NCBI GenBank assembly: GCA_004017535.1
Contig: SAJS01000001.1
Location: 62,001 to 126,000, forward strand
Reading direction: 5' to 3'
Origin: Mesorhizobium sp.
Lineage (GTDB): Bacteria; Pseudomonadota; Alphaproteobacteria; Rhizobiales; Rhizobiaceae
Length of the DNA stretch: 64,000 nt
Part shown: positions 9,007 to 38,235 of the stretch, one piece after another
How the letters are laid out: the number at the start of each line of letters is the position of its first letter
Position numbering within the stretch: the first letter of the stretch is position 1
Translations under genes and position numbers: made by a program
The notes under the pieces: generated by a model
Told to the model about the DNA's origin: nothing
Database searches by the model: none
The model's input: the letters and a program-made list of their open reading frames with translations, nothing else

Positions 9007-9108
9007 CCCGGTCAAATCTGGCGAAAAGCTGCTTGGAAACTGCTGAACCGCGCCAAGGCGGCTTCGGCATCGGCAATTAGGACAAGCGGACCAACATGGA
9101 GGTCCGCC

Positions 9109-10668
9109 TTGAACATCGTGCTGATCAATCCGCCGCACACGGCCATCGGCAGCCGCGTGCCCGACGACCATCTGCCGCCGCTTGGGCTGCTTGCGATCGG
9201 CGGCCCGCTGATCGATTCAGGCCATCAGGTACGCCTCGTCGATGCCGAGTTCGGGCCGATGCCGCTTGCGGTGCTGATGGAGGAGGCCTTGCGCGATGAT
9301 CCCGATTTCATCCTGATCGGCCATTCCGGTTCGACCTCGGCGCATCCGACCGCCTTGAAGATCGCCGAAATGATCAAGGCCCGCGCGCCGGTCGTCGTCG
9401 TCATCTATGGCGGCGTGTTTCCGACCTATCACTGGCGCGACATCCTCGCCGCGACCGACGTCTTCGACTTCATCGTGCGCGGCGAGGGCGAGGCGACCGC
9501 GACGGCGCTGGTCGAGGCCGTCGAAATGCGCCAGCCGGTGGGAAGTGTCGCAGGCATCGCCTATCGCGACGATCTCGGCCGCCCGGTCGCGACGCAGGCG
9601 GCCATGACGATCGCCGATCTCGACGCTTATCGCATCGGCTGGGAGCTGATCGATCATCGCCGCTACTCCTATTGGGGCGGCAAGCGCGCGGTGGTCATGC
9701 AGTTCTCGCGCGGCTGCCCGCATCTGTGCAACTATTGCGGCCAGCGCGGCTTCTGGACCCGCTGGCGGCATCGCGACCCGGTGAAATTCGCTAAGGAGAT
9801 CGGCTGGCTCTATCGCGAGCACGGCGTCGAGCTGGTCAATCTGGCGGATGAGAATCCGACCTCCTCGAAGAAGGCTTGGCGCGCCTTTCTCGACGCCATG
9901 ATCGCCGAGAACGTGCCGGTGCTGATCGTCGGCTCGACCCGCGCCGACGACATCGTGCGTGACGCCGATATTCTGCACCTTTACCGCAAGGCCGGTGTCA
10001 TTCGCTGGCTACTCGGCATGGAGAACACCGATGAGGAGACACTGTCATTGATCCGCAAGGGCGGCAGCACCAAGTCGGACCGCGAAGCGATCCGGCTGCT
10101 TCGCCGGCACGGGATATTGTCGATGGCGACCTGGGTCGCGGGCTTCGAGGACGAGACGTTTAGCGATCTCTGGCGCGGCTTCCGCCAGCTCATCGCTTAT
10201 GATCCCGACCAGATCCAGGCGCTCTATGTCACGCCGCATCGCTGGACGCCGTTCTTCCGCATCGCCCGCGACCGCAACGTGATCCAGAAGGACGTCCGCC
10301 TCTGGGATTACAAGCATCAGGTTCTGCATATGACCCGGCTGAAGCCGTGGATGCTGTTCTTCGCCGTCAAGCTGATCGAGGTCGCCGTGCAGTCGCGGCC
10401 GAAGGCGCTGGCGCGGATTCTTTTCCACCCCGATCCCGAGCAGCGACATTCGATGCGCTGGTACACCAAGATGGGCCGCCGCGTCTGGTTCCGCGAGGTC
10501 TGGGGCTTTCTCGCCCGCGACCGCCGCGTCACGGACGGGCCGACATTAGCCGAATTCTGGGGCGCGCCGCAGGACGCCGAGGAGGAATCGATGATCGTCA
10601 GGCGGCCGGTCCGCAGACCTGCCGTCGAGAGCCGGCCTCTGCCGGAAGGACGAAGATTAGCCGGCTGA
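9109..10668 (+). CDS. B12-binding radical SAM protein, BchE-like (anaerobic Mg-protoporphyrin ester cyclase family)
   Basis: The 519-residue protein has an N-terminal cobalamin-binding Rossmann region (MNIVLINPPHT, VYGG-type strand VVVVIYGGVFPTYHWRDIL) and a radical SAM domain. The iron-sulfur cysteines are Cys203, Cys207 and Cys210 in RGCPHLCNYCGQ (CxxxCxxC). Its C-terminal region (VKLIEVAVQSRPKAL, FHPDPEQRHSMRWYTKMGRR, WFREVWGFLARD) resembles what I recall of BchE, the oxygen-independent enzyme that closes the isocyclic ring of Mg-protoporphyrin IX monomethyl ester. The start is a TTG at 9109, with GGAGGT 7 bases upstream. No other bacteriochlorophyll gene is in the window, so the substrate may differ. 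Confidence 0.8.
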   Translation: MNIVLINPPHTAIGSRVPDDHLPPLGLLAIGGPLIDSGHQVRLVDAEFGPMPLAVLMEEALRDDPDFILIGHSGSTSAHPTALKIAEMIKARAPVVVVIYGGVFPTYHWRDILAATDVFDFIVRGEGEATATALVEAVEMRQPVGSVAGIAYRDDLGRPVATQAAMTIADLDAYRIGWELIDHRRYSYWGGKRAVVMQFSRGCPHLCNYCGQRGFWTRWRHRDPVKFAKEIGWLYREHGVELVNLADENPTSSKKAWRAFLDAMIAENVPVLIVGSTRADDIVRDADILHLYRKAGVIRWLLGMENTDEETLSLIRKGGSTKSDREAIRLLRRHGILSMATWVAGFEDETFSDLWRGFRQLIAYDPDQIQALYVTPHRWTPFFRIARDRNVIQKDVRLWDYKHQVLHMTRLKPWMLFFAVKLIEVAVQSRPKALARILFHPDPEQRHSMRWYTKMGRRVWFREVWGFLARDRRVTDGPTLAEFWGAPQDAEEESMIVRRPVRRPAVESRPLPEGRRLAG

Positions 10669-10703
10669 ATATGGCAGTTCACGAGACGGTGAACTTGCCC
10701 CTT

Positions 10704-11597
10704 TTACGGAACGATCAGCGTGCCGGCGCCGTGCTCGGTGAAGAGCTCCAGCAGCACCGAATGCGGCGTCTTGCCGTTGAGGATGACGACGCCTTCGACT
10801 CCGCGCTCGATCGCCTCGATGCAGGTCTCGACCTTCGGGATCATGCCGCCCGACACCGTGCCGTCCTTGATCAGCACCTTGGCCTCGGCGACCGTCAGCT
10901 CGTCGATCAGCTTCTTGTTCTTGTCGAGCACGCCGGGCACGTCGGTGAGGAAGAGCAGGCGCGAGGCGCGGCAGGCGCCGGCGATGGCGCCCGCGAACGT
11001 GTCGGCGTTGATGTTGTAGGTGTGGCCGTCGCGGCCGGGCGCCACGGGCGCCAGCACCGGGATCATCTCCGAGCGGGCAAGCAGATCGAGCAGCGTGCGG
11101 TCGACCTCGACCGGCTCGCCCACGAAGCCGAGATCCAGCACCCGCTCGATGTTGGAGTCGGGGTCGATCATGGTCTTGCGCGCCTTTTCGGCGAACACCA
11201 TGTTGCCGTCCTTGCCGCAAAGCCCGATCGCCCACTCGCCCTCGGCGTTGATCAGCGCCACGATTTCCTTGTTGATCGAGCCCGCCAGCACCATCTCGAC
11301 GATCTCGACCGTCTTCTGGTCGGTGACACGCAGCCCGCCCTCGAACTTGGATTCGATGCCCATCTTGGTCAGCATCGCGCCGATCTGCGGCCCGCCGCCA
11401 TGCACGACGATCGGGTTTACGCCGGACTGTTTCAAGAGCGCGATGTCGCGAGCGAAGGCCTTGCCGAGCTCGGTATCGCCCATGGCATGGCCGCCATATT
11501 TCACCACCACCGTCTTGTTCTCGTAGCGCTGCATGTAAGGCAGCGCGCGTGAGAGCAGCGCGGCCTGCATTTCGGCGTTGGCGGCGACGTCCGTCAT
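10704..11597 (-). CDS. argB: Acetylglutamate kinase
   Basis: ArgB phosphorylates N-acetyl-L-glutamate, the second step of arginine synthesis. The start chosen is the ATG at 11597 ([20 protein letters not shown]), giving 297 residues as in rhizobial ArgB. Visible motifs are [11 protein letters not shown] (phosphate-binding Lys), [34 protein letters not shown] and [17 protein letters not shown]. The frame is open further upstream to 11720, but that extension is translated repeat sequence (family B). The neighbours upstream in a typical rhizobial chromosome would be engB and yidC; here they are 12-17 kb away on the same strand. Confidence 0.96.
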
Positions 11598-11614
11598 AGG
11601 TATCGATCCCAGCT

Positions 11615-11662
11615 GAGCATGTCTCCCGAAAATGGGTACCGGTTTCGGGATGAAGACATGCT
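11615..11662. repeat. Dispersed palindromic repeat, family B, copy 2
   Basis: AGCATGTCTCCCGAAA and CCGGTTTCGGGA with AAGACATGCT form the same hairpin as at 3122-3168, with few differences. It lies in the argB leader, between its start codon and any promoter, so it would be part of the argB transcript if transcription starts upstream of it. Confidence 0.85.
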
Positions 11663-11785
11663 TGAAATCAGAGTTAAGCTTGATTGGCGGCCTCTTAGCG
11701 GGAATTGCCGCGGGCCGCAAACGGCTTTGCGGTCACAATGATGAAATCACTTGGTTCCCCGCACTGGGATTTGATCAGGCCGGCA

Positions 11786-11965
11786 ATGTTTATGCTGTCA
11801 GGCGGCATGCCTGGAGATTGGCCGAAACGCCTATCGCGATTGTAATCCACGGGCGGAGCAAGGAGCGAAGCGACGCGAGCAGACCCGAGGATCCATTCCA
11901 TGACTTCGACGCGCCTCAGCGGTCCAGAATTCTGCTCCGCTGCATCTCTCGTCTGAGGTAACGGC
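11786..11965. repeat. Dispersed repeat, family C, fragment 2
   Basis: The left part (about 11806-11866) is an inverted match to 5706-5767. The right part (CCCGAGGATCCATTCC at 11884-11899, CAGAATTCTGC near 11925) matches the element at 61237-61397 in the same orientation. The order of the shared blocks differs between copies, so it is a composite or rearranged copy. Confidence 0.75.
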
Positions 11966-12138
11966 ATAGATTCCAGGGTCCCCGCGACGCAGCTTCGCGG
12001 CGGCTCCGTCCTGGAAAGACGAGGTTGGAAGATTTCAGCCAATTCCCGGCCATCGGCGCCTGATTTGCTTTGCAACGGCCCATGCCCACAAGCGCCGGAT
12101 CGGCCCGCGGCCGCCGGTGAACAAGGCTCTCGCGCCCG

Positions 12139-12155
12139 TTGCAATTAGATTGCAA
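12139..12155. promoter_or_regulatory. Perfect inverted repeat upstream of the ECF sigma gene
   Basis: TTGCAAT-TAG-ATTGCAA, 7-base perfect arms around a 3-base spacer, ends 17 bases before the sigma-factor ATG. Its place over the expected leader or promoter of the sigma/anti-sigma operon makes it a candidate operator. No binding protein is identified. Confidence 0.45.
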
Positions 12156-12172
12156 TCTTCTAATTTGCCGCC

Positions 12173-12712
12173 ATGGCGCCGCAGGACATCAGCAAGCTGA
12201 TCGTCCGGACTTCGATGAAGGACCGGGCCGCGTTCGATCTGCTCTACAAGCAGACGAGCGCGAAACTTTTCGGCGTTTGCCTTCGTATCTTGAGGGACAG
12301 AGGAGATGCGGAAGAAGCGCTGCAGGAGGTCTTCGTCAAGATATGGACGAAGGCGGACCGCTTCGCGGTTTCCGATCTGAGCCCGATTTCCTGGCTGGTG
12401 GCCATCGCGCGCAACCATGCGATCGATCGCATCCGGGCGCGGCGCAGTCCTCCCGCCAATATCGACGCAGCTCTTGACGTCGCCGATCCGACGCCGGGAC
12501 CTGAGGCCACGGCGGTGGCGGGCGGCGAGACCGAACGCATCCACCATTGCCTCGAAGAGTTGGAGAAGGACCGGGCAGCGGCCGTCCGGGGCGCCTATCT
12601 AAGTGGCGAAAGCTATGCCGAGCTGGCGGAGCGCTTCAAGGTTCCGCTGAACACGATGCGGACCTGGCTGCGGCGAAGCCTGCTTAAACTGAGAGAATGC
12701 CTGGAAAGATGA
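12173..12712 (+). CDS. ECF-type RNA polymerase sigma factor (SigK/RpoE-like)
   Basis: The 179-residue protein has sigma region 2 (RAAFDLLYKQTSAKLFGVCL, then LRDRGDAEEALQEVFVKIW and SPISWLVAIARNHAIDRIRA) and region 4 (RGAYLSGESYAELAERFKVP, then NTMRTWLRRSLLKLRECL). There is no C-terminal extension. The next gene is an RskA-type anti-sigma factor whose preferred start overlaps this stop by four bases (ATGA), so the pair is translationally coupled and this sigma is presumably held inactive at the membrane. The secreted fasciclin gene that follows at 13647 is a plausible target, by analogy with the SigK-RskA-MPT70/MPT83 arrangement of mycobacteria. Confidence 0.92.
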   Translation: MAPQDISKLIVRTSMKDRAAFDLLYKQTSAKLFGVCLRILRDRGDAEEALQEVFVKIWTKADRFAVSDLSPISWLVAIARNHAIDRIRARRSPPANIDAALDVADPTPGPEATAVAGGETERIHHCLEELEKDRAAAVRGAYLSGESYAELAERFKVPLNTMRTWLRRSLLKLRECLER

Positions 12713-13431
12713 CGCTGGCGGAAGACAACGGACCGGAACGTGGAGGCGACGACCTGCTCGCCGCCGAATACGTTCTCGGCGTGCTGGCAGCCGACGACCG
12801 CCAGATCGCGTCCCGCCGCGTCGATACCGAGGCGGCCTTCGCCCGGCTGGTCGATGCCTGGGAGGTCCATTTCGCCCCGATGGCCGCCACCTATGCCGCA
12901 GTCGAGCCGCCGGCTTCTGTCAAGGTGGCGATCGACAGGCGGCTGTTCGCATCGTCCGCCTCCAACTCAACGGCGCCCAGCGGTGGCCTATGGCGCAGCC
13001 TCGCCTTCTGGCGCGGCCTTGCCGCCGCGGCCATTGCGGCTTTGGCCCTCTATGTCGCCCTGCCTTATGTCAATCCGCCGGTTCCGCCGCCCGGGACCAG
13101 GCTTGTCGCGTCGCTCGCCGCCGACAACAGCAACGTCAAATACCTTGCCGTCTACGACGCCGCCCGCCATGAGGTCGGCCTGTCGCTGGTCTCCGGCGAT
13201 CATGGCGCCGGCAAGGACTTCGAGCTGTGGATGATCGAGGGCAAGAACGCGCCGGTCTCGATGGGCGTCATCCCGGCCGGCCAGACCGCGCGCATGGCCG
13301 TTACCCCGGCCGTCCAGCAGAAGCTGGCGCAAGGCGCCGTGCTCGCCGTCAGCCTAGAGCCTTCGGGCGGTTCGCCGACCGGCCAACCGACCGGCCCTGT
13401 CGTGGCCGCGGGTGACCTGAAGGGCATCTGA
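12709..13431 (+). CDS. RskA-type membrane anti-sigma factor
   Basis: About 240 residues. The N-terminal cytoplasmic part (DDLLAAEYVLGVLAADD, then WEVHFAPMAATYAAVEPP) is the sigma-binding region of the RskA group and lacks the HxxxCxxC zinc motif. One membrane segment follows near residues 100-118 (GLAAAAIAALALYVALPYV). The periplasmic C-terminal domain (RLVASLAADNSNVKYLAVYD, KDFELWMIEGKNAPVSMGVI, LAVSLEPSGGSPTGQPTGPV) fits the anti-sigma-K RskA C-terminal family. The start at 12709 gives an ATGA overlap with the sigma gene; an in-frame ATG at 12697 is the alternative. Release of the sigma factor probably needs regulated proteolysis, but no protease gene is adjacent. Confidence 0.88.
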   Translation: MTLAEDNGPERGGDDLLAAEYVLGVLAADDRQIASRRVDTEAAFARLVDAWEVHFAPMAATYAAVEPPASVKVAIDRRLFASSASNSTAPSGGLWRSLAFWRGLAAAAIAALALYVALPYVNPPVPPPGTRLVASLAADNSNVKYLAVYDAARHEVGLSLVSGDHGAGKDFELWMIEGKNAPVSMGVIPAGQTARMAVTPAVQQKLAQGAVLAVSLEPSGGSPTGQPTGPVVAAGDLKGI

Positions 13432-13646
13432 CCGCCGCTTCGGCATAGTCACGCCCATAAAGACCAATCGAAGTCTATTTTCTGTCAGTAGATGGCAGGA
13501 GAACTCTGTTGTCGTTGTAGGTAGGGCATATGAAATAAATCGCGCTAAGGAAAAATTTTGTAACAGTCGTGAAACTAGCTTTTCGACCGCCCCGTATCTC
13601 CTCGCGTTCCCAAGGACGGGAAAAACAACCCGAGGAGACTGACACA

Positions 13647-14201
13647 ATGCGTAAACTCGCCACCCTTTTGCTCGCCTCCACGCTCGGCCTTTCCGCGCTC
13701 GGCGCCGTTGCCTATGCCAATCCGATGGTCGGCGGCGCTCCGATGTATGCCAAGAAGAACATCATCGAGAACGCCGTCAATTCGAAGGACCACACCACGC
13801 TGGTCGCCGCCGTCAAGGCCGCCGGTCTTGTCGACACGCTGCAGGGCGCCGGTCCGTTCACTGTGTTTGCGCCGACCAACGAAGCCTTCGCGGCGCTGCC
13901 CGCCGGCACGGTCGACACGCTGCTCAAGCCCGAGAACAAGGATAAGCTGACCAAGGTGCTGACCTGCCATGTCGTCGCCGCCAAGGCGCTGGCCGCCGAT
14001 GTTGCCAAGATGGCCAAGGCCGATGGCGGCGCCCACCAAGTCAAGACGGTCGGCGGCTGCGAGCTGACGCTGAAGGCTGAGAAGGGCAAGCTCACCGTCA
14101 CCGACGAGAACGGCAATGTCGCCCATGTCACTATCGCCGATGTCCGCCAATCGAACGGCGTCATCCACGTCATCGACAAGGTTCTCTTGCCCAAGATGTA
14201 A
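13647..14201 (+). CDS. Secreted fasciclin (FAS1) domain protein
   Basis: A 184-residue protein. The N-terminal signal peptide is MRKLATLLLASTLGLSALGA with a likely cleavage near AYA-NP. A single FAS1 domain follows, with its conserved boxes GAGPFTVFAPTNEAFAALP (H1) and a C-terminal GVIHVIDKVLLP (H2). FAS1 proteins are adhesion or surface-binding proteins; MPT70 of Mycobacterium has the same one-domain secreted form. The ATG at 13647 has GAGGAG 10 bases upstream. The 215-base upstream gap from the anti-sigma gene suggests its own promoter. The stop-codon region is duplicated in tandem just downstream. Confidence 0.93.
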   Translation: MRKLATLLLASTLGLSALGAVAYANPMVGGAPMYAKKNIIENAVNSKDHTTLVAAVKAAGLVDTLQGAGPFTVFAPTNEAFAALPAGTVDTLLKPENKDKLTKVLTCHVVAAKALAADVAKMAKADGGAHQVKTVGGCELTLKAEKGKLTVTDENGNVAHVTIADVRQSNGVIHVIDKVLLPKM

Positions 14202-14230
14202 CAAAGCGGGCCGAAGATGTAACAAAGCGG
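14193..14230. repeat. Tandem duplication of the fasciclin gene 3' end
   Basis: AAGATGTAACAAAGCGG occurs at 14193-14209 and again at 14214-14230 (period 21). The first copy contains the native stop codon TAA; the second repeats the last codons and stop outside the gene. Confidence 0.9.
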
Positions 14231-14423
14231 ACCTGGCCGGCGAAGACATGGCTGAGCGCCGGCCGCGACATCCAAGATCCGCGCCGCCGGCAAGGGTCTG
14301 CTCCGTGTCGCGCCGCAAGGGCGGCGCGGAGCTGCGTGCTCAAGCAATAACGGATAGGGCGTCACCGGTTTTTGATTTCCGGGCGGTGCTCTATCTTGGC
14401 AAAATATCGCAGGAGGAACGGCA

Positions 14424-14927
<504 letters not shown>

Positions 14928-14952
14928 TCACTTTCGACTGCTGGAAATGAAT

Positions 14953-14984
14953 GACCCCGGAAATCGTCGCCGATTTCCGGGGTC
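14953..14984. terminator. Bidirectional hairpin between convergent msrB and DHA2 pump gene
   Basis: A perfect 13-base inverted repeat, GACCCCGGAAATC at 14953-14965 and GATTTCCGGGGTC at 14972-14984, around a 6-base loop. It sits between two convergent stop codons, where a shared terminator is expected. There is no long T-run on either side. Confidence 0.7.
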
Positions 14985-15019
14985 ACGTGTTGAGGAGACC
15001 AGGCGGGGGTTCCGGCTCC

Positions 15020-16633
15020 TCAATGGCCTCCGCCGCCACCGCCACCCTGCTGGGCGGGCTTGTTGATGAACAGCACGAAGAATCCGAGCGAGGCGAACAG
15101 CACCGTCAGCATCATGAAGACGTCCATGAAGGACAAAAGCGCCGCCTGCTGCTGCACGATGCCCGACAATTTCGAGATCGCCGCGCTCGTAGCGTCGAGC
15201 CCTGCGGTCTGCTGGAAAGTCAGCTCCATGTTCTGCAGCTTGGTCTGTGCGGCCTGGCTGCCCCACTGCACATGCTCAGCAAGCCGCGCATAGTGGAAAG
15301 CGTTGCGGTCGATCAGCACCGTGTTGATCAGCGCCAGGCCGACGGCGCCGCCGAGATTGCGGGTCAGGTTGAACAGGCCCGACGCATTCTTCAGCCGTTC
15401 CGGCGGCAAAGTGCCGAGCGCGATGTTGTTGATCGGCACCATGCACAGCATCATTGAGCAGCCGCGCAGGATCTGCGGGATCAAGAGCTCGTAAAAATCC
15501 CAGTCGGCGGTGAGATGCGTCATCCACCACGTACCGGCGGCGAAGCCGACGAAGCCGATCATCATCATCAGCCTGAGGTCGATCTTGTTCGACAGGATGC
15601 CGGCGACCGGCGCGGTGAAGAACATCGCCAGGCCGCTGACAAACAGCGCCTCGCCGATCATCATAGAATCGTAGCCGCGGATGCGTCCCAGGAACACCGG
15701 ATAGAGGTAGGTGAGCCCGTAAAGGCCGATGCCGACGACGAAGGAGAACAGCGAACCGAAGGCGAAGTTGATGTTGCTGAACGCCCTCAGGTCGACGATC
15801 GGCTCCTCGGCGGTGAAGACGCGCCAGAAGAAGATGACGCCGCCTATGGTCATGATGATGGCGCAGGCAAAGACGGCCGGCTCCTGCAGCCAGTCATGGT
15901 TCGGGCCTTCCTCCAGCACATATTCCATGCAGCCGAGGAAGGCGGCCATGCCGGCCAAGCCCCACCAGTCGAACTTGGAGAACAGTTTCAGGTTGGGCTT
16001 GTCGAAATCGATCAGCGCCCAGGCGGCAGTCGCCACCAAAATGCCGGGCACGACATTGATCAGGAACAGCCAGTGCCAGGACATGGCATGGCTGATATAG
16101 CCGCCCACAGTCGGGCCGATCGTCGGCGCCAGCGTCGCCACCAGGCCGATCATCGGCGAGACGACGGCACGCTTGGAGGGCGGAAAGATGGTGAAGGCGG
16201 CCGCAAACACGCTGGGGATCATGCCGCCGCCGATAAAACCCTGGATGGCGCGGTAGACGATCATCTGGTCGATGTTGGTTGCGGTGGCGGCGAGTGCGCT
16301 GGCCGCGGTGAAGCCGGCGGCCGCCGTGGTGAACAGCACGCGCGTCGACAGCATGCGGCTAAGGAAGCCCGACAGCGGGATCATCACCACCTCGGCGATC
16401 AGATAGGCGGTCTGCACCCACGGGATCTCATCGGAGCTGGCGCTGAGGCCCGCCTGGATTTCCGACAGCGAGGCCGAGACGATCTGGATGTCGAGGATCG
16501 CCATGAACATGCCGAACACCATCGCCAGAAAGGCAACGACGCGGCGCACGGGCATATGGTCCGTGGGCAGCGCCGGCGCGGCAGCGGCCGGACGTGTGGG
16601 CATTGATCCTGCGGTGATGGTTGCGGTTGCCAT
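15020..16633 (-). CDS. DHA2-family MFS efflux permease (EmrB-like)
   Basis: A 537-residue, roughly 14-helix proton-coupled drug exporter. Early DHA2 motifs are visible: LAMVFGMFMAILDIQIVSAS in the first helix, IPWVQTAYLIAEVVMIPLSG in the second, and the family C motif APTIGPTVGGYISHAMSWHW. The tail is glycine-rich (QQGGGGGGGH). In this family the permease works with an EmrA/HlyD periplasmic adaptor and an outer-membrane channel. The adaptor gene is directly upstream (118 bases between) and both are [19 protein letters not shown] by the divergent TetR protein. The natural substrate cannot be read from sequence. Confidence 0.92.
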   Translation of the reverse strand: MATATITAGSMPTRPAAAAPALPTDHMPVRRVVAFLAMVFGMFMAILDIQIVSASLSEIQAGLSASSDEIPWVQTAYLIAEVVMIPLSGFLSRMLSTRVLFTTAAAGFTAASALAATATNIDQMIVYRAIQGFIGGGMIPSVFAAAFTIFPPSKRAVVSPMIGLVATLAPTIGPTVGGYISHAMSWHWLFLINVVPGILVATAAWALIDFDKPNLKLFSKFDWWGLAGMAAFLGCMEYVLEEGPNHDWLQEPAVFACAIIMTIGGVIFFWRVFTAEEPIVDLRAFSNINFAFGSLFSFVVGIGLYGLTYLYPVFLGRIRGYDSMMIGEALFVSGLAMFFTAPVAGILSNKIDLRLMMMIGFVGFAAGTWWMTHLTADWDFYELLIPQILRGCSMMLCMVPINNIALGTLPPERLKNASGLFNLTRNLGGAVGLALINTVLIDRNAFHYARLAEHVQWGSQAAQTKLQNMELTFQQTAGLDATSAAISKLSGIVQQQAALLSFMDVFMMLTVLFASLGFFVLFINKPAQQGGGGGGGH

Positions 16634-31502: not shown

Positions 31503-32993
31503 ATGACGAGTGAAACTCAGTCCACGAACGATAAGGCAACCCCGGCGGCAAACCCGACGCGCCGGGTGCCGCTGTCGCGCGGCCTGTCGACAAAGCTTCT
31601 TCTGCTCACCATCGCCTTCGTGCTCTTGGCCGAAATCCTGATCTTCCTGCCCTGGATCGCCAGCTACCGGGTGAACTGGCTCAAGGAGCGGTTGAGCACC
31701 GCCGCCGCCGTGTCGATCGTTTTGTTGCAGGGCGAGCCCAACGCGCTGTCGCACAACGCTCAGAACGATGTGCTGATGGCGATCGGGGCCAAGGCGATCG
31801 CCGTTCGCGACGGCGGCGTCTCGCGGCTGCTCGTCGTTTCCGACATGCCGCCGCAGGTCGACGAGCATATCGACATCGCCAATGTCGGCCTGGTCAACGG
31901 CATGACCGGCGCGCTCGACACTTTGTTCTTCGGCGGCAAGCGCATGCTGCGCGTCTTCGGCCCGGTCGGCGACAGCGACAAGGAATTCGAGCTGATCATG
32001 CCGGATTACCGCCTGCGCGACGCTATGCTCAGATACTCGCGCAATGTCGCCGTCGTCTCGCTGCTCATCTCGCTCTTCACCGCAATGCTGGTCTATGCGG
32101 CGATCGACCTGATCATGATCGGGCCGATCCGCACCATGACGCGCTCGATCCTGTCCTTCTCCGAGGCGCCCGACGATCCCGGGCGCATAATCTGCCCGAC
32201 CGAGCGCGCCGACGAGATCGGCGTGGCCGAGCGCGAGCTGGCGCAGATGCAGGGCCGGCTGCAGAAGATGCTGTCGGAGCAGAAGCACCTCGCCGACCTC
32301 GGCCTTGCCGTGTCGAAGATCAACCACGACATGCGCAACATCCTGGCTTCCGCGCAGCTGATGTCGGACCGCCTGCGCCAGGTAAAGGATCCGACCGTGC
32401 AGTCCTTCGCGCCGAAGCTCTTGCGCGCGCTCGACCGCGCCGTCTCCTATTCCGAAGGCGTGCTTCACTATGGGCGCACCCAGGAGCCGGCGCCCTCACG
32501 CCGGCGCCTGCGGCTGCGCCAGCTGGTCGACGACGTGCACGGCCTGCTCGACATCGAGGAAGGCATCGAGTTCATCAATGGCGTCGAGCATGCCTTCGAG
32601 GTCGATGCCGATTCCGACCATCTCTTCCGCGTGCTCACGAATCTGTGCCGTAATTCCATTCAGGCGATGGCAGCCGATACGGAGAGGACGGTTGTGCGCC
32701 GGCTGGCGGTCGCCGCCGAGCGCCACGGCAGCGTCAGCCGCATCACCGTCACCGACACCGGCCCCGGCCTCCCGCCCAAGGCGCGCGAGAATCTGTTCGC
32801 CGCCTTCCGGGGCTCGGCGCGCAGCGGCGGCACCGGTCTCGGCCTGGCGATCGCGCATGAACTGATCCGCGCCCATGGCGGCTCGGTCGAACTTGTCGAA
32901 TCGATCGGTGGCCGCACCGTCTTCGCCGTCACCATCCCCGACCAGCCGGTGCGGCTCGATCAAGCGCGCAGCGGCCTGCGCCGCCCGGCTTGA
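31503..32993 (+). CDS. Orphan sensor histidine kinase
   Basis: A 496-residue membrane kinase. Two membrane helices (LLLLTIAFVLLAEILIFLPW and NVAVVSLLISLFTAMLVYAA) flank a roughly 150-residue periplasmic sensor region, followed by a HAMP-like linker. The phosphoacceptor is His275 in SKINHDMRNILASAQLMS; HDxRN is an unusual H-box. The ATPase domain has an N-box NLCRNSIQAM, G1 VTDTGPGLPP and G2 GSARSGGTGLGLAIAHELIR. No response regulator gene is adjacent, so the partner is elsewhere. The gene is divergent from rpmH. The signal is unknown. Confidence 0.92.
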   Translation: MTSETQSTNDKATPAANPTRRVPLSRGLSTKLLLLTIAFVLLAEILIFLPWIASYRVNWLKERLSTAAAVSIVLLQGEPNALSHNAQNDVLMAIGAKAIAVRDGGVSRLLVVSDMPPQVDEHIDIANVGLVNGMTGALDTLFFGGKRMLRVFGPVGDSDKEFELIMPDYRLRDAMLRYSRNVAVVSLLISLFTAMLVYAAIDLIMIGPIRTMTRSILSFSEAPDDPGRIICPTERADEIGVAERELAQMQGRLQKMLSEQKHLADLGLAVSKINHDMRNILASAQLMSDRLRQVKDPTVQSFAPKLLRALDRAVSYSEGVLHYGRTQEPAPSRRRLRLRQLVDDVHGLLDIEEGIEFINGVEHAFEVDADSDHLFRVLTNLCRNSIQAMAADTERTVVRRLAVAAERHGSVSRITVTDTGPGLPPKARENLFAAFRGSARSGGTGLGLAIAHELIRAHGGSVELVESIGGRTVFAVTIPDQPVRLDQARSGLRRPA

Positions 32994-33137
32994 GGTGTAC
33001 CGATATTCAGGTGATGCCGGCCTGCAAATGGCGCCTTCCTGTGCTTCCGGTGCTCACGTACTTTAAGTACGTTCCGCTCCGGTTCTCGGAATCCACCATT
33101 TTCGTCTCTGCCTGACCTGAATCTCGGCACACCTCCA
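32992..33137. repeat. Long nested palindrome (RIME-like) upstream of tRNA-Arg
   Basis: The outer arms GAGGTGTACCGATATTCAGG (from 32992) and ACCTGAATCTCGGCACACCT (from 33116) pair with two mismatches. Inside, CAAATGG pairs with CCATTTT. At the centre is a perfect palindrome, ACGTACTT-T-AAGTACGT at 33056-33072. It starts at the histidine kinase stop codon and resembles the large intergenic mosaic palindromes known from rhizobia. It may also end the kinase transcript. Confidence 0.75.
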
Positions 33138-33273
33138 CATCGGGGAACCGCCTGCGACAAAACTTTTGCCGGATCGGCTTGCAATTCTCAAATTCAGTCG
33201 TTAGGGAACACTCCACATCGCGGCCGGCCGTCTCGACCGGATCGCGGGGCTTGTGTCACACACGGCCTGTTGC

Positions 33274-33350
33274 GCGCCCGTAGCTCAGCTGGATAGAGCA
33301 CCAGACTACGAATCTGGGGGTCAGGAGTTCGAATCTCTTCGGGCGCGCCA
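33274..33350 (+). tRNA. tRNA-Arg (anticodon ACG)
   Basis: A 77-base tRNA with encoded CCA. The acceptor stem is GCGCCCG (33274-33280) with CGGGCGC (33340-33346); D-stem GCTC/GAGC; anticodon stem CCAGA/TCTGG with loop CTACGAA and anticodon ACG at 33308-33310; T-arm with GTTCGAATC. The ACG wobble A is read as inosine after TadA editing, so it decodes CGU, CGC and CGA. The AT-richer block that follows makes it a candidate integration site. Confidence 0.98.
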
Positions 33351-33381
33351 ATCATTCTGCAAATCGCATTTGATTGTGAGG

Positions 33382-33936
33382 CTAGGCAATAGAGCGTCTG
33401 ACGATCTTTTCACTTCTGCGTTTCGTCTCCGCCCTCGCGTCCTCATAGGCTTTTCTCAGGCCAATAAATTCAGGTTCTCGTCCTGCCCTCCTTGCAACGG
33501 TGTAGAGCCAATCGAGGTTGTTCAGCGCGCTTACGGTCTCAGATGGCTTGCGCCCAGCGCGTCGGGCCTTCCGTAGATGCTCAATGTTTAGCTTGGCAAT
33601 GCCCAGCCGGTGCATTTCTCGCAATTCTACAGTAGCGGGCTTGGTAGCATAGTCTGCAAAATGAGCGTCCACGAGATCATCAACGATGGCAAGCAAGCGC
33701 GTAGAAATTTCAAGCTCAGCCTCATAGGCCTCTTTGTACGATTGCTCCGACGCGTTGTTCGTCATCGTGCCGTAGCTGCTAAAGCTCCACTCGTTGGAGC
33801 AGCGCTGACAATCTGTGCCATAAGAGATTTGCACGGAACTCCAAGGGTTGTCCTGTGACGTGACGTATTTGAACAGCTTGCCTTGGCTGCACGGACACGG
33901 ACCCAATGCAATGTCGACTGTCTCAGATGTGCTCAT
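33382..33936 (-). CDS. Zinc-ribbon-like protein of unknown function, island gene
   Basis: A 184-residue protein from the ATG at 33936, which has a good Shine-Dalgarno GAGGAGT just upstream; the frame is open to 34113 but the extension lacks support. The N-terminus has Cys14 and Cys16 (GPCPCSQG) and Cys43 and Cys46 (TDCQRCSNEW), spaced like a zinc ribbon. The rest is helical and charged (ARRAGRKPSETVSALNNLDW, LRKAYEDARAETKRRSEK). I do not recognise a named family. Codon use is noticeably more AT-rich than in flanking core genes. It points toward the tRNA and is divergent from the nucleotidyltransferase/DUF262 pair, with about 155 bases between. Confidence 0.65.
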   Translation of the reverse strand: MSTSETVDIALGPCPCSQGKLFKYVTSQDNPWSSVQISYGTDCQRCSNEWSFSSYGTMTNNASEQSYKEAYEAELEISTRLLAIVDDLVDAHFADYATKPATVELREMHRLGIAKLNIEHLRKARRAGRKPSETVSALNNLDWLYTVARRAGREPEFIGLRKAYEDARAETKRRSEKIVRRSIA

Positions 33937-34091
33937 ATTTCCACTCCTCATAGCTTCCGTATACTGCGAGTGACCACGGTCATCCAGGGTTGAGGGTGTG
34001 TCCGAAAAAACGGCACGGTCGCCCATTTGCCTGGAGGGTTGCCTCGACTCTGGACGGAGCATAGAGTTCGGATCGGCGGGGGTAATCATGC

Positions 34092-34691
34092 ATGTCGGCG
34101 AAGAATGAGCCAAAAAGTCTCCAGGAATTTAAGGCGGCAATTCTAAAAGATGGCGTGGAAGCTGCCGCATCTACGCATCTGATGGACCGTATCCCTTTTG
34201 TGTTTAAGAACGACTGGGGTCTTTACCGAAATTGGAAACGGAAGCTTGGAAAGCTCATAGAGGTTGATCCCCTAAATATAACCATTATTGGAAGTGGGTG
34301 CACTGGTTTTAGCTTGAATCCCTATAAAGGATTCCGAGCCTTCTCCTCCCAATCCGATATCGATGTGGCGGTCGTTTCTGACTATCATTTTACGCTGTCT
34401 TGGCGTGCGCTTAGATCCATCAAACTTCCAGATGTGCGCTCTGCGCGCGATCGGGAAGCGATATTGGCTCATCGATCGAACTACATCTATTGGGGCTGCA
34501 TAGCGACCGATCGGGTGCTTCGTTATTTACCTTTCGTGCGTCAGTGGACGGAAGCTACGTCCGCAATGGCTGGCGAGAGACCGACGGAAGAACGAGACGT
34601 AAAGATTCGTCTGTATAGGGACTACGACGCTCTGCGCTCCTACCACATGAATGGTCTGGAGACGATCGTCACAACATTGATGGCAAGCTGA
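34092..34691 (+). CDS. Nucleotidyltransferase-like protein, coupled to DUF262 gene
   Basis: A 199-residue protein. Between residues 62 and 95 it reads NITIIGSGCTGFSLNP and then SSQSDIDVAVV, matching the Pol-beta-type nucleotidyltransferase pattern: Gly67-Ser68 and the metal-binding pair Asp89 and Asp91 (GS-x-DxD). A third catalytic acid is not obvious, so activity is uncertain. The rest is helical with a tail ending ETIVTTLMAS. The start ATG at 34092 has GGGGGT upstream. The stop codon TGA shares its last base with the DUF262 start (TGATG), so the two proteins are made together. Base composition is AT-richer than the chromosome around it. The substrate is unknown; CBASS-type cyclases share this core motif but are larger. 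Confidence 0.65.
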   Translation: MSAKNEPKSLQEFKAAILKDGVEAAASTHLMDRIPFVFKNDWGLYRNWKRKLGKLIEVDPLNITIIGSGCTGFSLNPYKGFRAFSSQSDIDVAVVSDYHFTLSWRALRSIKLPDVRSARDREAILAHRSNYIYWGCIATDRVLRYLPFVRQWTEATSAMAGERPTEERDVKIRLYRDYDALRSYHMNGLETIVTTLMAS

Positions 34692-35731
34692 TGGACAAGA
34701 ACCTTTTATCGTCGACAACTCACAACGTGGCGTGGCTTAACAAGCGCTATTTGTCAGAAGAATTGCAGTTAAAGCCACCTTTCCAGAGAAACCCAGTATG
34801 GACCGAGAAGCAGAAATCGTATTTAATTGATACAATATTGCACGGATACCCAATTCCGGAGTTATATATGCAGGAGTATACGGATCAAAACGGCAATGAT
34901 GCGTATATTGTTGTCGACGGGCAGCAGCGCGTAAGGGCATGTCTCGAATATATTCGAGGGGAATTTCCTCTTTCCTCGAAAGACAGTCCCGACTGGGCAG
35001 ACATGTTCTTTGACGAACTTAGCGACGATGATAAGAAAAAAGTATACAATTACAATTTCATAGTCCGGGTATTGCCGGACCTTCCCGACGCTGAACTTAG
35101 GGCTATCTTTAGCAGGCTGAACCGCCATGTCGTGGCACTCAATAGGCAGGAGCTTAGACATGCTACATACTGGGGTGAATTCATTGAATCAGTTGAGAAG
35201 ATTTCAGACATGGAAGGATGGTCCGAGGTTGGTCTTTTCACGCCGAACGACGTGCGGCGAATGTTGGATATCGAATATGTTAGCGAACTAGCAGTTGGGT
35301 ATCTTCATGGCCTTCAAAATAAAAAGGAGAGTTTGGACAAGTGGTATGAGGCCTATGAAAATGAGTTTCCAGACAGGCGTCGAATGGAGAGAGCGTTTTA
35401 TATCACACTACAGGAAATTATCATGGTGCTGCCAAATATCACGAAGACGAGATGGAGAAAGAAGTCGGACTTCTACACGTTATTCCTTTTGCTTGCGGAG
35501 AACTCGTCAAAGTTTCCGCTGGCAAGCGATCTAAGAGAGAAATTGGGAAATAATCTTACCGAGTTCGCGGACCAAGTTGATTTGTACCTTCGCGATCCAA
35601 ACAGCGATGGCCATAATGATAAGTCGGTTCGAGACTATGCTGCAGCGGTTGAGCGTGCAGCGTCCGATTTAGCACGTCGCCGCGCCAGAAGGACTGAGGT
35701 CGCAAAGGTTGTCGACGCAGTGATTGGCTAG
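34691..35731 (+). CDS. DUF262 domain protein (ParB/Srx-like fold, DGQQR motif)
   Basis: A 346-residue protein with a full N-terminal DUF262 domain: LKPPFQRNPVWTEKQKSYLI, DTILHGYPIPELYM and IVVDGQQRVRACLEYI, where Asp76-Gly-Gln-Gln-Arg80 is the conserved active motif. Then comes FSRLNRHVVALNRQELRHA, also typical. In GmrS/GmrD, SspE and similar anti-phage proteins this fold acts as an NTPase that licenses a nuclease. Here no HNH/DUF1524 nuclease domain follows; the C-terminal 170 residues are helical and end in a basic tail (ASDLARRRARRTEV). It is translationally coupled to the nucleotidyltransferase-like gene. A hairpin follows its stop codon. Confidence 0.85.
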   Translation: MDKNLLSSTTHNVAWLNKRYLSEELQLKPPFQRNPVWTEKQKSYLIDTILHGYPIPELYMQEYTDQNGNDAYIVVDGQQRVRACLEYIRGEFPLSSKDSPDWADMFFDELSDDDKKKVYNYNFIVRVLPDLPDAELRAIFSRLNRHVVALNRQELRHATYWGEFIESVEKISDMEGWSEVGLFTPNDVRRMLDIEYVSELAVGYLHGLQNKKESLDKWYEAYENEFPDRRRMERAFYITLQEIIMVLPNITKTRWRKKSDFYTLFLLLAENSSKFPLASDLREKLGNNLTEFADQVDLYLRDPNSDGHNDKSVRDYAAAVERAASDLARRRARRTEVAKVVDAVIG

Positions 35732-35736
35732 CTGAG

Positions 35737-35773
35737 GGCAGCCTGTCGTTTCTTGCAGTCGATACAGGCTGCC
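35737..35773. terminator. Perfect hairpin between the DUF262 gene and a convergent AraC gene
   Basis: GGCAGCCTGT (35737-35746) and ACAGGCTGCC (35764-35773) are perfect 10-base arms around a 17-base loop. It lies 5 bases after the DUF262 stop and 12 before the AraC gene stop, a position suited to a bidirectional terminator. It also marks the right edge of the AT-richer island. Confidence 0.7.
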
Positions 35774-35784
35774 ATCCGAAACCG

Positions 35785-36663
35785 CTATTTCAACGGCAGA
35801 AACAGATCCACGATGATCTCGGGCACAGGCCTGTCCGGGGCGAAGGACAGCCGTCGCTGGCAATAGAGCGGGAAGTCGCGCGCTTCCTCGCCGCTGGCCG
35901 GAAGCCAGTCGCGATAAAGATAGAGACCGGCTGGCTCAAGATTGTTGGTGTTGCCGGGGTAACGCAGTACTGCGCAGCGTCCGCCGGGGATGACGCCGGC
36001 CTTCATCTGCTTGTCGTCCGCCGCGATCGGCTGGTCGGTCCCGACGCAAATATCCATGCTGTAATCGGCCGCGACCGCCGGACATCTCTCGGAACGGAAG
36101 ATGTTGAAGGTCGGGCTTGTTTCCGGCGACAGGCCGGCGGCCTTGCGCCAGGCGATGAAGCGCTGGATGGTATCGCCGAGCGTCGCCCGGTCCCCCCGAT
36201 GCTCCATGATAGCCACCGGCGTGGGCGGCACGTCGCGGATCGTCACGTCGTCTTGGGTAAAGATGATCTGCATGAGCTTTCTCCTGGCATTGTCGAGCGG
36301 CCCGAAGGCCATAAGCCACGCTCCCCAGTTGGGAGATTTACGGAATGACGAGGGCGATTGTCCGAACCGTTGCCGAAAGGCGCGGGCGAAGGCGTCCGGC
36401 GCTTCGTAACCGATATCCATCGCTATGTCCGTGACGCTCTCCCTGTCGGCCAGCCGGTACGAGGCGCGCTTCATGCGGGTGAGTTGGACATAGCGATGCA
36501 CGGACAACCCGAAGGTCGCCGTGAACTGCCGGTGGAAATGGAACTTGGAGAAGGCCGCGACGCGGCTCACCGTTTCCAGGTCCAGGTTGCCGTCGAGGTG
36601 CTGGTCTATGTAGTCCAGCGCCCGCTGCATTCGGGCATGGTAGTTCTGAAACGCCGCTTTCAT
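35785..36663 (-). CDS. AraC family regulator with GyrI-like effector domain
   Basis: A 292-residue protein. The N-terminal double helix-turn-helix (ALDYIDQHLDGNLDLETVSR, FSKFHFHRQFTATFGLSVHR, then DIAMDIGYEAPDAFARAFRQ and RFGQSPSSFRKS) is joined to a C-terminal GyrI-like/SHV domain (VPPTPVAIMEHRGDRATLGD, GVIPGGRCAVLRYPGN, FPLYCQRRL). In this Rob/SoxS-related group the second domain binds small lipophilic effectors. It is divergent from a RibD-like reductase gene about 180 bases away, which may be a target. The effector is unknown. Confidence 0.9.
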   Translation of the reverse strand: MKAAFQNYHARMQRALDYIDQHLDGNLDLETVSRVAAFSKFHFHRQFTATFGLSVHRYVQLTRMKRASYRLADRESVTDIAMDIGYEAPDAFARAFRQRFGQSPSSFRKSPNWGAWLMAFGPLDNARRKLMQIIFTQDDVTIRDVPPTPVAIMEHRGDRATLGDTIQRFIAWRKAAGLSPETSPTFNIFRSERCPAVAADYSMDICVGTDQPIAADDKQMKAGVIPGGRCAVLRYPGNTNNLEPAGLYLYRDWLPASGEEARDFPLYCQRRLSFAPDRPVPEIIVDLFLPLK

Positions 36664-36846
36664 CGTTCCTTGCTCTGTGGCCGCATCACTTAGCCGCCAG
36701 GGGCTGAAATGTTCTCGACCGATCTTGCGGTTTGGAAACGTTCATGCGCGCGCCAAAAACCAATTGCAAAATAAAACCGGTCGGCCTAACCTGAACCGAT
36801 TGCACAATTCAATCGGATCGCGCGAATGCCATGTGAGGAACAGGCA

Positions 36847-37377
<531 letters not shown>

Positions 37378-37398
37378 TCTCGCGATGGTCTCCCGTGA

Positions 37399-38235
37399 TC
37401 AGGTGAGCCGGACGATCTTGAAACCCTCGACCTCCTTGACGACCGGATGGTCCTTCCAGCGCTCGACATCATGCAGCACGACGAGCTTCGACAGGTCGCC
37501 GCCGAGCTCGTCGTTCATCTTGTCGATGGTCTTCAGCTGCTCCCAGACGCTGCCCACCGCATTGTTGAGCGGGACATAGACGCCGTCGTGATTGTGCCCG
37601 GTGAACTGGCGGCGCGAATAGACGCAATCGCCGGAGATGACCCGGCGACCGGCATCGGTGTCGACGAGCACGAATTGCTGGCCGATTGTGTGGCCGCTGC
37701 CGAGCCGCGCATGGATGCCGGGCAGGATGTTGTCCTTGTCGCCGTCGATGAGCGTCACGCGATGCTCGATCGAGGCTTCGAGGGCGGTGCGCAAATTGTC
37801 GGGATCGATGATGGCGGTCAGATGCGCGAAGCGTTTCGGCAGCGCGATCGCCTCTTACCACGAAAGCAGTTCGCTCTTCTGGATGTGGATATGCGCCCGC
37901 GGGAATTCGGCGATCGAGCCCATATGGTCGAAATGCGCATGGGTGACCACGATGTCGCTGATCTGATCGGGCGCGATGTCGAGCGCCGCCAGCATCCGCA
38001 CCGGCGAAATCCATGTCGGGATGCCGAACTTCTGCGAGAAGCTGTGGTCGTCCTGCATGAAGCCGGTATCGATCAGCACGTTGCGTTCGCCGTTGCGCGC
38101 GAGCACGAAGGAGAAGGGCAAGTCGACCACGCCGTCATTGTACATGCCGCTGATGAGATCGACCCAGGGCTGCTCCTTGGAGCGCGCATATTCCAGCACG
38201 AAGACTTGCCATTTCGCGGATTGCGGAACGGTCAT
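37399..38235 (-). pseudogene. N-acyl-homoserine-lactonase-family metallohydrolase broken by one in-frame stop
   Basis: From the ATG at 38235 the frame encodes a metallo-beta-lactamase-fold lactonase: ISGMYNDGVVDLPFSFVLAR, NVLIDTGF and the metal motif THAHFDHMG (His99, His101, Asp103, His104). Codon 127 is TAA (37855-37857) right after KSELLSW. The same frame then continues without a gap (EAIALPKRFAHLTAIIDPDN, GSGHTIGQQFVLVDTDAGRR, ISGDCVYSRRQ, VVLHDVERWKDHPVVKEVEG) to 37399, completing a normal 278-codon gene. A single base change thus explains the break. The gene is 17 bases downstream of the ABC permease stop in the same operon. The truncated 126-residue product would lack two metal ligands. 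Confidence 0.85.

What the first reader, a model, noticed from the sequence alone, without database searches (positions are those of the whole stretch)
34092..35731. Coupled nucleotidyltransferase-like / DUF262 pair beside tRNA-Arg: candidate undescribed defence module
Two genes overlap by one base (TGATG) in an AT-richer block next to tRNA-Arg(ACG). One has a Pol-beta-like GS and DxD core (Gly67-Ser68, Asp89, Asp91) in a small 199-residue protein. The other has a complete DUF262 domain with DGQQR but no HNH/DUF1524 nuclease domain. DUF262 is known from anti-phage proteins such as GmrSD and SspE. A DUF262 protein without its nuclease, coupled to a nucleotidyltransferase, is not an arrangement I know. 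A toxin-antitoxin or nucleotide-signal defence role is possible; both functions are inferred from motifs.
Basis: partly seen in the sequence, partly recalled or inferred. Interest (0 to 1): 0.72.

Follow-up and report, generated by a model that had tools for sequence, protein, structure and literature searches.

The report
Prophage-borne nucleotidyltransferase–DUF262 gene pair
Two overlapping genes, a small nucleotidyltransferase-like protein and a nuclease-less DUF262 protein, form a mobile unit that recurs on bacterial chromosomes, plasmids and prophages, including a spot known to carry anti-phage genes, and is probably a not yet described two-part phage defence or toxin system.

Summary
ORFs 34092-34691 and 34691-35731 overlap by one base, lie in a low-GC block downstream of tRNA-Arg(ACG), and carry GS..DxD (G67, S68, D89, D91) and DGQQR.

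The pair is a conserved unit. From the NT side, 19 of 21 distinct loci have a DUF262 gene immediately downstream; two have a transglycosylase gene upstream (two weak matches dropped; most queries were built from paired NTs). Pairs occur in Rhizobiales, Paraburkholderia, a 6.2-kb Cronobacter plasmid, E. coli prophages and IMG/VR contigs, twice between P2-type gpA and portal genes, a published anti-phage hotspot, and in two related NaeI restriction islands.

Other small DUF262 proteins without a recognised nuclease domain are coupled to HEPN, SIR2, FRG or kinase genes; the PADLOC model of the second PD-T4-2 protein (PD-T4-2 is a tested anti-T4 system) hits one HEPN partner. I therefore place the NT in the effector slot and DUF262 as NTP-driven sensor: inferred, about 50%.

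The first protein matches no family of known function; no third catalytic carboxylate is conserved. Structure prediction never ran. My literature searches found no description of the pair. Verdict: new variant of a known kind of two-gene defence module; function untested.

The parts
34092..34691 (+). nucleotidyltransferase-like protein, 199 aa (P0001); GS(67-68)-X20-D89xD91 core
   Evidence: phrog_32008 E=7.1e-45; no Pfam match near threshold, no NCBIfam or PADLOC match; 7 of 19 homologues hit PF01909 at E<=1, best 8.3e-4; G67,S68,S74,S88,D89,D91 invariant in 22 of 22
34691..35731 (+). small DUF262 (GmrSD_N) protein, 346 aa (P0002), DGQQR at 76-80, no DUF1524/HNH match
   Evidence: PF03235 2.6e-21; PADLOC NsnA 6.9e-40, PD-T4-2_A 9.7e-20, REase_II 1.1e-18; phrog_2598 1.1e-38; Q32, R33, W37, D76, G77, Q79, R80, R142, N144, E154, G162, R333 invariant in 23 of 23, Q78 in 21 of 23
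34689..34693 (+). one-base stop/start overlap (TGATG) coupling the two genes
   Evidence: in 17 intact pairs measured the junction ranges from a 12-nt gap to a 70-nt overlap, the longest depending on the start codon taken
33274..33350 (+). tRNA-Arg(ACG), left border of the variable stretch
   Evidence: in nine relatives read, the DNA just after this tRNA differs
33382..33936 (-). low-GC ORF of unknown function (P0003), in the same inserted block; not noticed beside the other pairs (by eye)
   Evidence: no significant family match; GC 0.532

Best explanation
A mobile two-gene defence (abortive-infection-like) module. The small DUF262 protein is the sensor and NTP-driven switch; the Pol-beta-type nucleotidyltransferase (NT) is the effector. 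In uninfected cells the two form an inactive complex. A phage cue (possibly modified or replicating phage DNA, as for other DUF262 proteins) triggers NTP binding or hydrolysis in DUF262, which frees or activates the NT; this adds nucleotides to a cell component (tRNA 3' ends are the best precedent) and stops growth or phage production. Shown here: gene pair, motifs, conservation, correlated divergence, contexts. Inferred: complex, activation cue, enzyme activity, target, defence.
For: Pairing: 19 of 21 distinct loci found by NT-type queries have DUF262 directly downstream (neighbours in 24, 25, 33, 41, 44, 51-53, 68, 82, 117-119). Distances of the two proteins over 17 pairs correlate r=0.947, 0 of 5000 permutations as high. 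Context: between P2-type gpA (PF05840 3e-124, 6e-131) and portal (PF04860 6e-14, 1e-12) in L071 and L072, the interval that PMC9122126 describes as an anti-phage hotspot (passages); in an E. coli prophage; beside a phage integrase (L037); in a NaeI - pair - C5 MTase - Vsr - integrase-like island in two related genomes; on a 6.2-kb plasmid. Slot argument: other small DUF262 genes are coupled to HEPN (L014, L020, L029; weakly L012), SIR2 (L017), FRG (L015) or protein kinase (L011, L026, L093) genes; the DUF262 proteins of L010, L011, L012, L014, L015, L017, L026 and L029 match GmrSD_N and no other Pfam family above its cut-off. PD-T4-2, whose A model hits the L029 DUF262 (4.3e-50) and whose B model hits its HEPN partner (4.4e-4), protects against T4 in its native strain (PMC9519451, passage). 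NT toxins that act on tRNA exist (MenT, titles and abstract starts).
Against: No infection, toxicity or enzyme data. No conserved third catalytic carboxylate (D/E at 169 in 13 of 22), so activity may be absent or unusual. Profile comparison with PF01909-type proteins was not significant (probability 3%), and the NT profile found no solved NT structure. The slot argument is by analogy, and gene order differs: NT precedes DUF262, as FRG does, while HEPN, SIR2 and kinase genes follow it. The window's own surroundings hold no defence gene that I recognised in 28.9-40.8 kb (by eye), and its tRNA-Arg site carries metabolic- and regulatory-looking genes in relatives. Three tblastn searches found no copy in INPHARED phages.
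Confidence: 0.5

Rival explanations
1. Roles reversed: the NT is the antitoxin or regulator and nucleotidylates DUF262 (as MntA adenylylates HepT), holding a toxic DUF262 NTPase or nuclease in check until infection.
For: NT gene comes first and overlaps, as the MNT gene comes first in MNT-HEPN pairs (PMC3710099 passages; MntA mechanism in PMC7641770 passages); GS and DxD kept; five DUF262 positions differ consistently between NT-paired (17) and other (6) proteins, e.g. E57 in 17 of 17 against 0 of 6 (no control run).
Against: Small DUF262 proteins pair with several toxin-type domains, so DUF262 looks like the regulator; no HEPN or known toxin in this pair; spacing GS-X20-DxD here, not GSX10DXD; the five positions may only reflect phylogeny and a small sample.
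Confidence: 0.22
2. Signalling pair: the NT makes a nucleotide or oligonucleotide on infection and the DUF262 protein is the ligand-gated effector.
For: DUF262 carries the motif described as an NTP pocket (PMC10952713 passage); NT-plus-effector is the CBASS layout (recalled).
Against: No CD-NTase match in Pfam or PADLOC; only about 200 aa, no second domain recognised; no effector domain recognised in P0002; third carboxylate not conserved.
Confidence: 0.12
3. Plain addiction or stabilisation module of mobile elements, with no effect on phages.
For: Found on plasmids, prophages and islands; overlapping genes.
Against: Recurs in the gpA-portal spot and in a restriction island, where anti-phage cargo is common; addiction and defence are not exclusive.
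Confidence: 0.1
4. Regulator of, or accessory to, restriction-modification systems beside which some DUF262 genes lie, rather than a free-standing system.
For: L021/L022: pair inside a NaeI - C5 MTase - Vsr island; L020: Vsr-like, HEPN and C5 MTase-like neighbours; other DUF262 genes beside Eco29kI REase (L015), EcoRI MTase (L016) and, by annotation, BsuBI/PstI REase and N-6 methylase (L027).
Against: No restriction-modification gene recognised (by annotation or eye) next to the pair in the window, L019, L023, L024 or the viral contigs read.
Confidence: 0.06

Closest known systems
PD-T4-2 (DUF262 protein A with small protein B; tested anti-T4 system of E. coli ECOR65)
   Same: Module with a DUF262 protein lacking DUF1524 (PMC10952713, passages); P0002 matches PD-T4-2_A at 9.7e-20.
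   Different: Partner differs: the PD-T4-2_B model hits the HEPN partner of an E. coli plasmid DUF262 (4.4e-4), not the NT (no match); gene order is the reverse of that DUF262-HEPN pair.
GmrSD / BrxU / SspE (DUF262 plus DUF1524 restriction enzymes)
   Same: DUF262 domain with DGQQR motif.
   Different: No DUF1524/HNH match in either protein.
HEPN-MNT (HepT-MntA) toxin-antitoxin
   Same: Small Pol-beta-like NT encoded first in a tight pair.
   Different: Partner is DUF262, not HEPN; GS to DxD spacing 20 in the window protein, not 10.
AbiEii / MenT nucleotidyltransferase toxins
   Same: NT as a possible toxin in a two-gene defence or TA unit (recalled, and abstract starts).
   Different: No family match; different partner protein.
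PADLOC NsnA (DUF262 protein model)
   Same: Best PADLOC match of P0002 (6.9e-40) and of each of the other small DUF262 proteins scanned.
   Different: No paper on NsnA found, so its partners are unknown to me; no PADLOC model matches the five NT proteins scanned.

Membership tests
GmrSD-type (type IV) restriction enzymes | DUF262/GmrSD_N domain with DGQQR | tested here: met
   PF03235 2.6e-21, D76-R80
GmrSD-type (type IV) restriction enzymes | DUF1524/HNH nuclease domain in same protein or partner | tested here: not met
   no such match for P0001 or P0002 in Pfam, NCBIfam, PADLOC
PD-T4-2 | A component: DUF262 protein of its profile | tested here: inconclusive
   9.7e-20, but the NsnA model scores better; an E. 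coli plasmid DUF262 paired with HEPN scores 4.3e-50
PD-T4-2 | B component | tested here: not met
   P0001 has no PADLOC match; the B model hits the HEPN partner of L029
Pol-beta nucleotidyltransferase superfamily | GS and DxD motif | tested here: met
   invariant in 22 of 22
Pol-beta nucleotidyltransferase superfamily | profile match | tested here: inconclusive
   7 of 19 homologues match PF01909 at E<=1, best 8.3e-4; not P0001 itself; hhalign not significant; no NT among PDB hits
Pol-beta nucleotidyltransferase superfamily | third catalytic carboxylate | tested here: inconclusive
   no invariant third acid; D/E at column 169 in 13 of 22, at column 179 in 17 of 22
Pol-beta nucleotidyltransferase superfamily | palm fold | not tested
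   structure machine busy at all 21 attempts (20 for the NT; one, for DUF262)
HEPN-MNT toxin-antitoxin | HEPN partner | tested here: not met
   partner is DUF262; no HEPN match
HEPN-MNT toxin-antitoxin | GSX10DXD spacing | tested here: not met
   GS-X20-DxD
CBASS | CD-NTase family match | tested here: not met
   no PADLOC or Pfam match; that these libraries hold CD-NTase models is recalled
AbiEii / MenT toxins | family profile match | tested here: not met
   no match in Pfam, NCBIfam, PADLOC; that the libraries hold such models is recalled
Anti-phage defence system | protection against phage | not testable with these tools
   needs phage challenge

The most novel reading that the evidence does not exclude
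Small nuclease-less DUF262 proteins are a general infection-sensing switch that bacteria and prophages couple to interchangeable killers (HEPN, SIR2, FRG, protein kinase and, newly, a divergent Pol-beta nucleotidyltransferase with a GSX20DXD core and no conserved third carboxylate); the window pair is the NT member of that class, and the same NT family has also been coupled to a peptidoglycan transglycosylase.
Probability: 0.35. Interest if true: 0.75.

Novelty: new variant of a known kind. Interest (0 to 1): 0.6.

Why it matters
If the module works as proposed, it adds an undescribed effector type to DUF262 systems and points to one sensor family wired to many killers. It would make a practical question testable: what does the small DUF262 protein sense, given that the same scaffold can be compared with different partners in one host? 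It also gives a prophage gene family of unknown function (phrog_32008) a partner and a likely role.

Tried and rejected
Structure prediction never started: machine busy at 21 attempts (NT alignment A4; DUF262 alignment A3 once), so no fold search was run. The five-row alignment A1 was too diverse for a scan; smaller alignments were used. Scans of viral contigs with single proteins and with A2 found nothing. tblastn in INPHARED phages with three NT proteins found nothing. Profile search of PDB with the NT family gave only chance hits. Search for a copy of the last 25 bases of the tRNA between 33351 and about 37000: none (best 10 mismatches), so no attachment-site repeat in the window.

Dropped before counting: two weak phrog_32008 matches (L006, L007; E about 5e-4, partial); L006 lies in a long ORF of another kind, L007 was not inspected. 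With them the NT-side count would be 19 of 23. L038 carries the pair with a frameshifted NT; counted as a locus, not used in alignments. L021/L022, and L037/L038, are pairs of close relatives and not independent. Most NT queries were built from NTs already known to be paired, so unpaired distant relatives may be missed.

NsnA: no paper found. The idea that the block sits in a dedicated defence hotspot was rejected: the same tRNA-Arg site holds TetR-, hydrolase-, SDR-, aldo/keto reductase- and LysR-like genes in relatives (by eye). The mirror-tree value is inflated by relatedness.

Full report
1. What is there. tRNA-Arg(acg) lies at 33274-33350. Between it and the pair is an opposite-strand ORF of unknown function, 33382-33936. 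The pair's genes have 49.5% and 46.4% GC and third-position GC of 0.52; five flanking genes measured have 61-69% and 0.80-0.88.

2. Origin of the block. All 41 genomes of the genus searched with window 32500-37400 (own included) have matches to parts of it (the listing was cut, and not every genome shows both flanks). Nine relatives were read. One (G702) has only 116 bases between the end of the tRNA match and the match to the right-hand side at 36756; another (G710) shares the downstream AraC-like segment with the window but has a hydrolase- and a TetR-like ORF where the window has the low-GC ORF, the NT and DUF262. So 33351 to about 35764 is a replaceable insert. No repeat of the tRNA's end was found on the far side in the window, but one relative (G697) has a 39-base, 90% copy of the tRNA's 5' part at the right-hand junction. 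In L019 (Mesorhizobium sp. B2-7-2, NT 44% identical) the pair lies about 200 bases after a tRNA-Ala gene, counting from the start codon that I took.

3. First protein. P0001 has no NCBIfam or PADLOC match and only a noise-level Pfam match; PHROG 32008, of unknown function, is matched (7.1e-45). In 22 aligned homologues G67, S68, S74, S88, D89 and D91 are invariant; S96 is kept in 20. Seven of 19 homologues match PF01909 NTP_transf_2 at E<=1 (best 8.3e-4); each of the six other families listed is matched by one member. That supports a Pol-beta-type nucleotidyltransferase, but weakly: the window protein has no PF01909 match, hhalign with PF01909-type proteins gave 3% probability, and PDB profile hits were noise. 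Spacing is GS-X20-DxD, not the GSX10DXD of MntA (PMC7641770, passages). No third acidic residue is invariant; D/E occurs at column 169 in 13 of 22 and at column 179 in 17 of 22.

4. Second protein. GmrSD_N/DUF262 at residues 27-160 (2.6e-21), DGQQR at 76-80, no nuclease domain at threshold. PADLOC: NsnA 6.9e-40, PD-T4-2_A 9.7e-20, REase_II 1.1e-18 over the same DUF262 stretch. Across 23 DUF262 proteins (17 with NT partners, 6 with others) Q32, R33, W37, D76, G77, Q79, R80, R142, N144, E154, G162 and R333 are among the invariant residues; Q78 is kept in 21.

5. Are the two genes a unit? Distinct loci with an NT homologue: window; L009/L019; L020 (Paraburkholderia); L021 (Agrobacterium albertimagni); L003/L022 (Brucella endophytica); L005; L018; L023 (Cronobacter plasmid); L024 (Pseudoalteromonas plasmid); L030/L031; L032; L033/L034; L035; L036; L037; L038; L071; L072; L090; L091; L092; and L004 and L025: 23 loci, some of them close relatives (L021 and L022; L037 and L038). 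In 21 a DUF262 gene follows at once (in L038 the NT is frameshifted); in L004 and L025 a transglycosylase gene precedes the NT. L037 and L038 were found from the DUF262 side only; without them the count is 19 of 21. Two weak matches (L006, L007) were dropped, and most queries were built from paired NTs. From the other side the link is loose: of 22 DUF262 places in 20 of 61 genomes of the genus, two have an NT, and an NT search of 62 genomes found only those two. In IMG/VR, 9 of 12 loci found from the DUF262 side have an NT next to it (7 of 10 when near-identical contigs are merged); the three without are the weakest DUF262 matches. Distances of the two proteins correlate over 17 pairs (r 0.947; 0 of 5000 permutations), inflated by close relatives. 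The NT family is rare: 2 of 62 genomes of the genus, 4 of 297 of the family, 3 of 347 of the class, each count including the window's own genome, and 3 of 5426 E. coli genomes for the L035 version.

6. Contexts. L071 and L072: between a P2-type gpA and a portal gene, all four ORFs confirmed by Pfam. PMC9122126 (passages) describes the gpA-gpQ interval as a second hotspot, home of old and tin in P2; its main text holds neither 'DUF262' nor 'nucleotidyltransferase' (its tables were not seen). L033/L034: near phage baseplate V and tail S genes. L035: the same DNA, at 99.8-99.9% identity, in three pig E. coli chromosomes; in the one inspected it is in a prophage between replication and antitermination genes. 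L037: next to a phage integrase; L038 has an integrase-like ORF upstream (by resemblance). L030: 1.8 kb from a Zot-like filamentous-phage gene. L036: in a phage replication region, followed by an ORF matching PADLOC PDC-S20 (3e-86). L021 and L022, nearly the same island: NaeI, pair, C5 methyltransferase, Vsr (Pfam on L021; NaeI also on L003), then an integrase-like ORF and tRNA-Ser. L023: 6.2-kb plasmid. L025 (transglycosylase version): plasmid with TIR and phospholipase D genes nearby. Three NT queries found nothing in INPHARED phages, so the viral copies seen are in IMG/VR contigs and prophages.

7. The partner slot. Other small DUF262 proteins are coupled to: HEPN (L014 and L020 PF18737, L029 PF18735, L012 below the cut-off), SIR2 (L017), FRG (L015, beside an Eco29kI-type REase gene), protein kinase (L011 by Pfam, L026 and L093 by annotation), EcoRI-type methylase (L016) and, by annotation, DUF3696 (L096). 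The DUF262 proteins of L010, L011, L012, L014, L015, L017, L026 and L029 match GmrSD_N and no other Pfam family above its cut-off. L010 and L013 partners have no Pfam match; L027, L028, L094 and L095 have hypothetical or no clear partners. The PADLOC model PD-T4-2_B hits the HEPN partner of L029 (4.4e-4) and PD-T4-2_A its DUF262 (4.3e-50); B hit none of the other HEPN-like partners scanned (L010, L012, L020). That PD-T4-2 is a DUF262-HEPN pair is thus my inference. PMC9519451 (passages) reports that deleting PD-T4-2 from its native strain greatly increased T4 plaquing. PMC10952713 (passages) lists PD-T4-2, Menshen and Dazbog as DUF262 systems without DUF1524. PMC3710099 (passages) already lists HEPN families in operon with ParB-type genes. 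Hence DUF262 is the constant part and the partner varies, often among toxin- or effector-type domains; the NT fits that slot. In the DUF262 tree the NT-paired proteins need two changes of partner; one origin is not excluded by the well-supported branches alone.

8. Mechanism and verdict. Best explanation: sensor DUF262, effector NT (0.5). Main rival: NT as modifying antitoxin (0.22), favoured by gene order. Signalling (0.12), pure addiction (0.1) and restriction accessory (0.06) are less likely. Not filed as GmrSD, PD-T4-2, HEPN-MNT, CBASS, AbiE or MenT: each fails a tested defining feature. It works like PD-T4-2-type two-gene modules and is best called a new variant of that kind. That the pair is undescribed rests on listings in an open-access library; subscription papers and supplements were not seen.

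Noticed in passing
L004:831-2085 and L025:7343-8597: A peptidoglycan transglycosylase gene (PF00912 in L004) overlaps an NT gene of the same family in an alphaproteobacterium and on an Aliarcobacter plasmid with TIR and phospholipase D genes nearby: a second, different pairing of this NT.
   Followed up: partly
L017:1405-3356; L015:719-2541; L014:425-2250; L011:1483-3603: Small DUF262 genes in the genus are coupled to SIR2, FRG, MAE_28990-type HEPN and protein kinase genes: a sensor-like hub with many partners.
   Followed up: partly
L020:7594-13184: In Paraburkholderia sp. SG-MS1 the NT-DUF262 pair is followed by a Vsr-like gene, a second DUF262-HEPN pair and a C5 methyltransferase-like gene.
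   Followed up: partly
L021 and L022, about 8850-15080: The pair lies in a NaeI restriction-modification island (NaeI, pair, C5 MTase, Vsr, integrase-like) next to tRNA-Ser.
   Followed up: yes
window 33351-36755: The DNA after tRNA-Arg(ACG) is a variable site in the genus: 116 bases in G702, different regulatory- and metabolic-looking genes in other relatives read.
   Followed up: yes
L061:1154-1192: In relative G697 a 39-base, 90% copy of the 5' part of the tRNA-Arg region stands at the right-hand junction of the variable site, a possible trace of tRNA-linked insertion.
   Followed up: no
window 33382-33936: Low-GC opposite-strand ORF with paired cysteines near its N-terminus, no family match; inserted with the pair.
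   Followed up: partly
L038:4363-4976: NT gene broken by a frameshift upstream of an open DUF262 ORF.
   Followed up: no
L036:6576-8318: ORF soon after the pair in this phage contig matches PADLOC candidate PDC-S20 (3e-86), another possible defence gene.
   Followed up: no
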